Below, piece by piece: positions 31,938-32,186 of a stretch of DNA of 64,000 bases. The stretch's first letter is position 1. The number at the start of each line of letters is the position of its first letter. Location: assembly GCF_000517105.1 (NCBI RefSeq), contig NZ_KI912149.1, forward strand, positions 1,203,946-1,267,945, given 5' to 3'. Below the pieces are notes generated by a model, which saw only the letters and a program-made list of their open reading frames with translations, was not told the origin of the DNA and searched no databases. Source of the DNA: Fischerella sp. PCC 9605 (GTDB lineage Bacteria > Cyanobacteriota > Cyanobacteriia > Cyanobacteriales > Nostocaceae). The translations under genes were made by a program, and so were the position numbers.

Positions 31938-32011
31938 GGACGTATAGCTCAGTTGGTTAGAGCGCTACGTTGACATCGTAGAGGTCACTGGTTCGAATCC
32001 AGTTACGTCCA
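31938..32011 (+). tRNA. tRNA-Val (anticodon GAC)
   Basis: 74 nt. The acceptor stem is GGACGTA / TACGTCC with discriminator A. The D-arm contains AGCTCAGTTGGTTAGAGC, the anticodon arm is CTACG-TTGACAT-CGTAG with anticodon GAC, and the T-arm has GGTTCGAATCC. CCA is not encoded. The segment from the D-arm into the anticodon loop (31959-31976), preceded by GGTT, is the exact protospacer of the transposon guide at 32156-32173. The tRNA itself is intact. Confidence 0.97.
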
Positions 32012-32019
32012 TATATATT

Positions 32020-32130
32020 TGTACAGTGACTAATTGTTTGTCATCGGTGATAAATTACTGTCATCGTGACTATTTAATTGTCGTCGGGACACATTGGTGT
32101 CCTTTAAGTGCTAGTGACAGATTAATGACA
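32020..32130 (+). mobile_element. Left end of a type V-K CRISPR-associated transposon (CAST)
   Basis: It begins TGTACAGTGAC and carries four spaced copies of a TnsB-site-like repeat: GTGACTAATTGTTTGTC (32026-32042), GTGATAAATTACTGTC (32047-32062), GTGACTATTTAATTGTC (32066-32082) and GTGACAGATTAATGAC (32114-32129). The order and spacing, including TCATCGGTGA and TCATCGTGAC links, match the known left end of Scytonema-type V-K CASTs as I remember it. The end starts 61 bp after a GGTT PAM in the adjacent tRNA, within the 60-66 bp insertion distance known for these systems. No transposition gene follows. Confidence 0.88.
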
Positions 32131-32155
32131 TTCATCCACGGACACTCTAGCGATA

Positions 32156-32186
32156 ATGTCAACGTAGCGCTCTCTTTCAACCTTCC
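32156..32186 (-). ncRNA. Delocalised CAST homing guide (repeat remnant plus 18-nt spacer)
   Basis: Read on the minus strand: GGAAGGTTGAAAG (32186-32174), whose GGTTGAAAG is the 3' end of V-K CRISPR repeats, followed by AGAGCGCTACGTTGACAT (32173-32156). These 18 bases equal 31959-31976 of the tRNA-Val gene, where they follow the PAM GGTT. This is the layout of the short, delocalised guides that V-K CASTs use to home to tRNA genes. The upstream part of the repeat is degenerate. Transcription cannot be judged from sequence. Confidence 0.85.

What the first reader, a model, noticed from the sequence alone, without database searches (positions are those of the whole stretch)
31938..32186. Type V-K CAST left end with a self-matching homing guide at a tRNA-Val gene
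Seen: 18 bases at 32156-32173 (minus strand), preceded by GGTTGAAAG, equal 31959-31976 of the tRNA-Val gene. There the protospacer follows GGTT, and TGTACA plus four TnsB-type repeats starts 61 bp after that PAM. Known: Cas12k systems use NGTN PAMs, insert 60-66 bp downstream with the left end nearer the PAM, and carry delocalised short-spacer guides against tRNA genes. Inference: a V-K CAST homed here using this very guide, and only its end and guide remain. Chance agreement of match, PAM, distance, polarity and repeat end is very unlikely.
Basis: partly seen in the sequence, partly recalled or inferred. Interest (0 to 1): 0.95.

Follow-up and report, generated by a model that had tools for sequence, protein, structure and literature searches.

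The report
Remnant of an RNA-guided jumping gene
Next to a tRNA gene of a cyanobacterium lies the worn-down left edge of a known kind of RNA-guided transposon, still carrying the short guide that matches that very tRNA gene; it is a clear fossil of a known system rather than something new.

Summary
An 18-nt stretch (32156-32173, minus strand) behind GGTTGAAAG equals tRNA-Val 31959-31976, follows a GGTT PAM, and a TGTACA transposon end starts 61 nt after the PAM. In the 8.08-Mb genome the 18-mer occurs only at these two places, even with 2 mismatches. From end to guide the window is 85% identical over about 190 bp to Nostoc sp. KVJ20, where a type V-K CRISPR array and cas12k follow. A scan of GTDB contigs for guide plus repeat end gave 10 loci, all with cyanobacterial titles; 9 of 10 show the same tRNA-Val, left end (57-62 nt) and guide. 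One, Amazonocrinis CENA67, is an 11.9-kb V-K CAST with Cas12k and a 5-bp target duplication, though its left end is more divergent. This is the published V-K layout. The window's genome has no Cas12k over the family cut-off, and of V-K TnsB only fragments plus one distant relative, so it is a dead relic. Possibly new: in 3 relatives, and perhaps here, the array is cut exactly at a second TGTACA end, as if transposase had deleted the interior.

The parts
31938..32011 (+). tRNA-Val (GAC), attachment gene of the transposon
   Evidence: ARAGORN; Rfam RF00005 75.5 bits
31955..31958 (+). PAM GGTT (GTN type) for the protospacer
   Evidence: sequence; GTN PAM rule from PMC9938897 (passages)
31959..31976 (+). 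anchor protospacer inside the tRNA gene
   Evidence: 18 of 18 identical to the guide; only two such sites in the genome
32020..32135 (+). V-K CAST left end: TGTACA terminus and TnsB-type repeats
   Evidence: homologous to left ends at the same tRNA in 10 other carriers; a more divergent left end of this kind bounds an 11.9-kb CAST with 5-bp target duplication in G077
32156..32173 (-). anchor (homing) spacer, 18 nt, matching the tRNA
32174..32182 (-). 3' end of the truncated repeat R* (GGTTGAAAG)
   Evidence: same in the 10 carriers aligned, except one change in L157 at the guide/repeat boundary
32183..32206 (-). rest of R* region and start of the array's last repeat, cut short
   Evidence: homology with 7 carriers (L149, L151-L155, G058) runs to 32206 (alignment)
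32215..32318 (.). small inverted-repeat (MITE-like) insertion, probably later; CCAATAC at 32207-32213 and again at 32319-32325
   Evidence: 19-nt terminal inverted repeats, 89% complementary; 72 bp of it match a place in G058 about 12 kb from the G058 element at 74%; flanks read
32326..32364 (+). second TGTACA-type transposon end in direct orientation; first 21 bp as in CAST ends, then unlike them
   Evidence: relatives at C6:482532 of the own genome and in G037, G055, G119, a shorter match in G105

Best explanation
It is the fossil of a type V-K CRISPR-associated transposon that homed to this tRNA-Val gene. In the living element, Cas12k with a tracrRNA takes the short anchor guide (R* plus 18-nt spacer), binds the tRNA gene next to a GTN PAM, and TnsB/TnsC/TniQ insert the element 57-62 nt beyond the PAM, left end first. 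Here the interior and the right end were lost afterwards, leaving the left end, the guide and part of one CRISPR repeat. Shown: match, PAM, distance, polarity, homology of end and guide to V-K CASTs at the same tRNA, absence of a Cas12k over the family cut-off and of a full-length close V-K TnsB in this genome. Inferred: that this guide directed the insertion, and the order of the losses. The division of labour among Cas12k, TnsB, TnsC and TniQ is established knowledge, not tested here.
For: Match, PAM and 61-nt spacing. Unique in the genome. 85.3% over 191 columns to Nostoc KVJ20, where an array, a Cas12k of full length with one in-frame stop and a CvkR homologue follow. Scan of GTDB genome contigs: 10 loci, all with cyanobacterial titles; 9 of 10 have the tRNA-Val, left end at 57-62 nt and guide. 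Same anatomy in print: PMC9938897 (passages). Own genome: Cas12k only one 24-bit match against a cut-off of 150; TnsB only two short fragments and one distant match.
Against: No Cas12k, TnsB, TnsC or CvkR match in the 64-kb window at E up to 1; TniQ was neither identified in G077 nor searched. No right end from 31301 to 64000 and no target duplication, so the bounds of the original element cannot be read here. The only complete element with this guide has a left end that differs from the carriers' consensus at 47 of 136 positions, more than the window's 22. gatB does not lie beside tRNA-Val in relatives where I compared positions, so the locus was rearranged and the ancestral flank is unknown. 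No RNA data.
Confidence: 0.95

Rival explanations
1. A non-autonomous mini-CAST: a short element with both ends and its own homing guide, moved by machinery supplied in trans, rather than a dead relic.
For: G058 holds a 680-bp element (left end, guide, array, right end; longest stop-to-stop reading 120 aa, too short for cas12k or tnsB) with the 5-bp duplication CTTGT on both sides; G143 holds a similar 480-bp one (longest reading 74 aa). Window and G107 also show a second TGTACA end after the guide.
Against: The window has no right end. The array is cut at different points in G058, G143 and G107 and again elsewhere in the window, which suggests separate deletions in place, not one travelling element. 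The flanks in G143 (TTTAT, TACCT) do not match. No machinery over the cut-off in the own genome.
Confidence: 0.06
2. A left end of another Tn7-like transposon that finds tRNA genes by a TniQ/TnsD protein, with the guide-like match by chance.
For: TGTACA ends also bound elements of roughly 200 bp in G147 and G148, so such ends are not proof of a CAST.
Against: Guide, R* and left end occur together in 10 other genomes (9 of them found by the guide); Cas12k or pieces of it in 5 of 10 scan loci (L148, L149, L150, L152, L155); the 18-nt match is far outside shuffles.
Confidence: 0.02
3. Two successive insertions (compatible with the best explanation): an older element left a stub at 32326 and the CAST inserted between it and the tRNA.
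For: Second TGTACA end in the same orientation; in G071 a V-K right end beside tnsB (94% to the G077 TnsB over 247 aa), its terminal bases reading TGTAAA, is followed after about 12 bases by a solo end of the same 21 bases.
Against: From base 22 on the 32326 end differs from the CAST ends seen here and resembles a 39-46-bp sequence dispersed in the own genome and in G037, G055 and G119, so the older element need not have been a CAST.
Confidence: 0.25

Closest known systems
[quoted passage not shown]
   Same: tRNA directed at the left end, truncated repeat R* with a roughly 17-nt anchor spacer reading towards the left end, GTN PAM, distance within 46-82 nt (passages read).
   Different: No array beyond part of one repeat, no cas12k over the cut-off and no full-length close tnsB in the genome, no right end; a MITE-like insert and a second TGTACA end lie where the array should be.
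   Same: Same tRNA-Val, same guide, left end at 57 nt.
   Different: 11.9 kb long with Cas12k, TnsB and both ends; TnsC in two ORFs; left end alignable to the window only in a 46-bp block and around the guide.
V-K CAST of Nostoc sp. KVJ20 (L152/L227)
   Same: Left end, guide and start of the last repeat 85.3% identical over 191 columns; G058 (86.2%) and L155 (85.9%) are slightly closer.
   Different: Long CRISPR array and Cas12k present (one in-frame stop); the contig ends before a right end.

Membership tests
Type V-K CAST | Cas12k effector gene in the element | tested here: not met
   No match over the cut-off in the own genome; none in the window at E up to 1. Present beside the same guide in relatives. 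So: relic of a V-K CAST, not a complete member.
Type V-K CAST | tnsB, tnsC, tniQ genes | tested here: not met
   TnsB: elsewhere in the genome two short fragments on C4 and a distant 33% match in a 428-aa open frame on C10; none in the window. TnsC: none in the window, not searched in the rest of the genome. TniQ not searched.
Type V-K CAST | TGTACA left end with TnsB-type repeats | tested here: met
   114 of 136 positions as in the consensus of 10 carriers
Type V-K CAST | Truncated repeat R* plus anchor spacer matching the adjacent tRNA gene | tested here: met
   18 of 18 match; GGTTGAAAG
Type V-K CAST | GTN PAM and insertion 46-82 nt downstream, left end nearest the PAM | tested here: met
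   GGTT, 61 nt, left end first; range from PMC9938897
Type V-K CAST | CRISPR array with V-K repeats | tested here: inconclusive
   Only part of the last repeat remains (to 32206), recognised by alignment to carriers
Type V-K CAST | Right end and 5-bp target duplication | tested here: not met
   No GTCACTGTACA with up to one mismatch between 31301 and 64000 of the window; seen in G077 and G058
Type V-K CAST | Guide expressed and used by Cas12k | not testable with these tools
   needs RNA and transposition assays

The most novel reading that the evidence does not exclude
V-K CASTs at this tRNA are repeatedly gutted by their own transposase: the CRISPR array is cut exactly at a TGTACA end in G058, G143 and G107 (and perhaps in the window), leaving left end and guide, and in G058 and G143 a fused 51-bp palindromic right end. 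This fits replicative self-insertion into the array followed by deletion at short homologies in the end repeats, and would make gene-less elements that keep a homing guide.
Probability: 0.3. Interest if true: 0.5.

Novelty: new member of a known kind. Interest (0 to 1): 0.33.

Why it matters
The locus is a clean fossil record of RNA-guided homing: guide, PAM, spacing and transposon end are all still readable although the machinery is gone. It adds to the evidence that this tRNA-Val is a much-used V-K attachment site in this family: counted by eye from the truncated listing, the best match of at least 50 of 145 genomes, own included, runs at least 20 bp into the left end (only some of these were looked at one by one). 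It also shows that left end plus guide can outlast the rest. The array-to-end junctions in three relatives are a testable lead on how such transposons die.

Tried and rejected
MITE versus right end: the stretch 32246-32262 looks a little like a CAST right end (by eye; part of it shows), but it lies inside the MITE-like insert, 72 bp of which match a place in G058 about 12 kb from the G058 element, so I do not call it a right end.

Second end at 32326 as the CAST's own right end read outside-in: rejected for the window because bases beyond the 21st differ from the right ends of G077 and G111 and match a dispersed sequence. What that sequence is remains unknown; in the four flanks fetched inside it (L228-L231, 8.7-10.7 kb each) no V-K TnsB, TnsC or Cas12k matched at E up to 0.001, apart from a 23-aa TnsB fragment just outside the end in G055.

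Spacer-guided self-insertion: the places where the arrays are cut give hand-counted distances of about 57, 47 and 54 nt in G058, G143 and the window from the next spacer start, and about 20 or 92 in G107; three in range is no better than chance, and the repeats offer no GTN PAM. Kept only as an idea.

Cas12k-like 24-bit match at C6:1979095 (L002, near a tRNA-Arg): below cut-off, and the same search rings in 2 of 14 control genomes; not used.

Rfam gave nothing but the tRNA over its gathering score at 30000-36000. Of eight ORFs in the 20-kb G058 stretch, seven match ordinary Pfam families and one none; no transposase or Cas12k among them.

Papers: the listings of searches showed no title or abstract start that I recognised as describing array-to-end junctions or miniature V-K CASTs. 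The papers most likely to (Hsieh and Peters 2021 preprint and 2022; Ziemann 2025; Saito 2021) are not held, so I make no claim that it is unpublished.

Full report
The window is part of contig C7 of an 8.08-Mb, 12-contig, 99.94%-complete genome. The tRNA-Val(GAC) gene lies at 31938-32011.

It is not chance. In blocks of the window that lack the guide the longest exact match to this tRNA is 10 nt, and 2000 mononucleotide shuffles of the next 500 bases reached at most 12 nt. In the whole genome the 18-mer, with up to 2 mismatches, occurs at the tRNA and at the guide only; the reversed control gives 0.

Homology. Of 145 genomes of the family searched with 31900-32190, the best matches of six others (G058, G143, G002, G071, G083, G107) run to query position 266 or beyond, through the left end and into or past the guide, at 75-89% identity; in G083 the guide is broken after its first 10 bases. 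By eye, 43 more stop earlier but reach at least 20 bp into the left end, so at least 50 of 145 with the own genome; the listing is cut, and most of these were not inspected singly. Several relatives with the same upstream flank have no such end there (for example G008, G108, G090).

A scan of GTDB genome contigs with the guide plus repeat end as an exact pattern gave 10 loci: seven Nostoc (two of them MAGs), Amazonocrinis nigriterrae CENA67, a Goleter apudmare MAG and Calothrix brevissima NIES-22. In 9 of 10 the tRNA-Val and a TGTACA left end lie at the right place, 57-62 nt from the PAM; in the tenth (L150) the guide sits 64 bases from the edge of the stretch.

Machinery beside this guide. 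In one search a Cas12k probe from G077 matched at full length in L148 and L152, in part in L149 and L150, by 34 residues in L155, and not in L151, L153, L154, L156 and L157; some held stretches are short (L151 shows only about 0.9 kb beyond the guide). L148/G077 is the most complete: left end to right end 11,909 bp with ATTTT on both sides, Cas12k 953.6 bits against a cut-off of 150, a Mu-type TnsB, a TniB-type TnsC in two ORFs, and a MerR regulator beside cas12k; I did not identify its tniQ. Cas12k of L152 has one in-frame stop.

The window against these. 32020-32206 is 83-86% identical over 189-191 columns to seven carriers (G058 86.2, L155 85.9, L152 85.3, L151 and L154 84.2, L153 83.7, L149 83.2), 82% over 137 to L157 and 83% over 143 to L156; to L148, the complete element, only a 46-bp block (87%) and 32 bp around the guide (97%) align; L150, which lacks the left end, gives 89% over 62. 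Against the consensus of 10 carriers the window's left end differs at 22 of 136 positions (L148 and L156 at 47) and its guide plus repeat end at 0 of 27. Nine of the ten carriers were selected on the guide, so only the left-end figure is unbiased.

Own genome. Cas12k: one 24-bit partial match, far below the cut-off of 150, in a search that also rings in 2 of 14 controls without passing the cut-off. V-K TnsB: fragments on contig C4 (67% over 73 aa, 50% over 60 aa) and a distant 33% match in a 428-aa open frame on C10. In the window, Cas12k, TnsB, TnsC and CvkR probes gave no match at E up to 1; the only hit was a 124-aa cargo ORF matching a window protein at 27574-27930. TniQ was not searched, TnsC not outside the window. 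Hence a relic.

Right side. At 32215-32318 lies a small element with 19-nt inverted repeats, 89% complementary, with CCAATAC on both sides. Directly after it a second TGTACA end starts at 32326, in the same orientation as the left end. Its first 21 bases equal CAST ends; the next bases resemble a sequence found once more in the own genome (C6:482532, 89% over 38), twice in G037 (90% and 87% over 39), in G055 (85% over 39) and in G119 (86% over 35), with a shorter match in G105 (87.5% over 32). I cannot name that element. Homology to the upstream region of the gene I take for gatB (recalled name) starts at about 32400. In relatives where I compared positions, gatB lies elsewhere than this tRNA (for example G004, G122, G108, G058), so this neighbourhood is a rearrangement.

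Short forms in relatives. In G058, G143 and G107 the array is broken off exactly at TGTACAGTGACTAATTATTTG (three distinct junctions among the loci then held). In G058 and G143 that end is fused to a right end as a 51-bp palindrome; in G058 the whole element is 680 bp with CTTGT on both sides and a longest stop-to-stop reading of 120 aa, in G143 480 bp with 74 aa and unmatched flanks. G058 has no Cas12k over the cut-off and G107 is not among the listed genomes with a match; G143 has one with a TAG on another contig. The array is cut at a different place each time, which points to separate events. An exact join at a transposon end suggests strand transfer into the array; the palindrome then fits deletion between inverted end repeats at short homologies. 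This is inference, and in the window the second end continues differently, so the window may not belong to it.

Literature. PMC9938897 (passages) reports 118 V-K CASTs with the left end usually downstream of a tRNA, the truncated repeat R* and a usually 17-nt anchor spacer read towards the left end, a GTN PAM and a distance of 46-82 nt with one exception of 147, and mentions degenerated Cas12k copies. [quoted passage not shown] The window matches these descriptions, which is why I file it as a decayed member of a known kind.

Noticed in passing
window 32326-32364; own genome C6:482532 (L142:5033); L140, L141, L214, L216: A dispersed 39-46-bp sequence starting TGTACAGTGACTAATTATTTGGGTT, with the first 21 bases of V-K CAST ends but a different continuation; the parent element is unknown.
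   Followed up: partly
L063 (G058, reverse complement 643-1322), L065 (G143, 674-1153), L071 (G107): Short CAST forms too small for cas12k or tnsB (680 and 480 bp): left end, homing guide, part of an array, then an exact TGTACA end; 51-bp palindromic right end in G058 and G143, matching 5-bp target duplication in G058. G107 has the array-to-end junction without a right end.
   Followed up: partly
L211, L212, L213, L222, L223 (G147, G148): Elements of roughly 200 bp with TGTACA ends of the V-K kind at both sides (some right ends with a changed base), five in G148 and one in G147: MITE-like.
   Followed up: no
L217 (G071 contig C100): A V-K right end next to tnsB (94% to the G077 TnsB over 247 aa) is followed after about 12 bases by a solo TGTACAGTGACTAATTATTTG end pointing away, possibly a trace of an earlier insertion.
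   Followed up: partly
own genome C4:5832-6283 (L225): Fragments of a V-K-type TnsB gene on a 32.7-kb contig, remains of a further CAST or related element.
   Followed up: partly
window 27574-27930: A 126-aa protein is related (36% over 122 aa) to a cargo ORF near tnsC in the G077 CAST.
   Followed up: no
L072 (G122): A relative with the same tRNA flank has its own decayed left end (TATACAGCGACTAATCATCTGTCGTCGG) at the same tRNA-Val.
   Followed up: no
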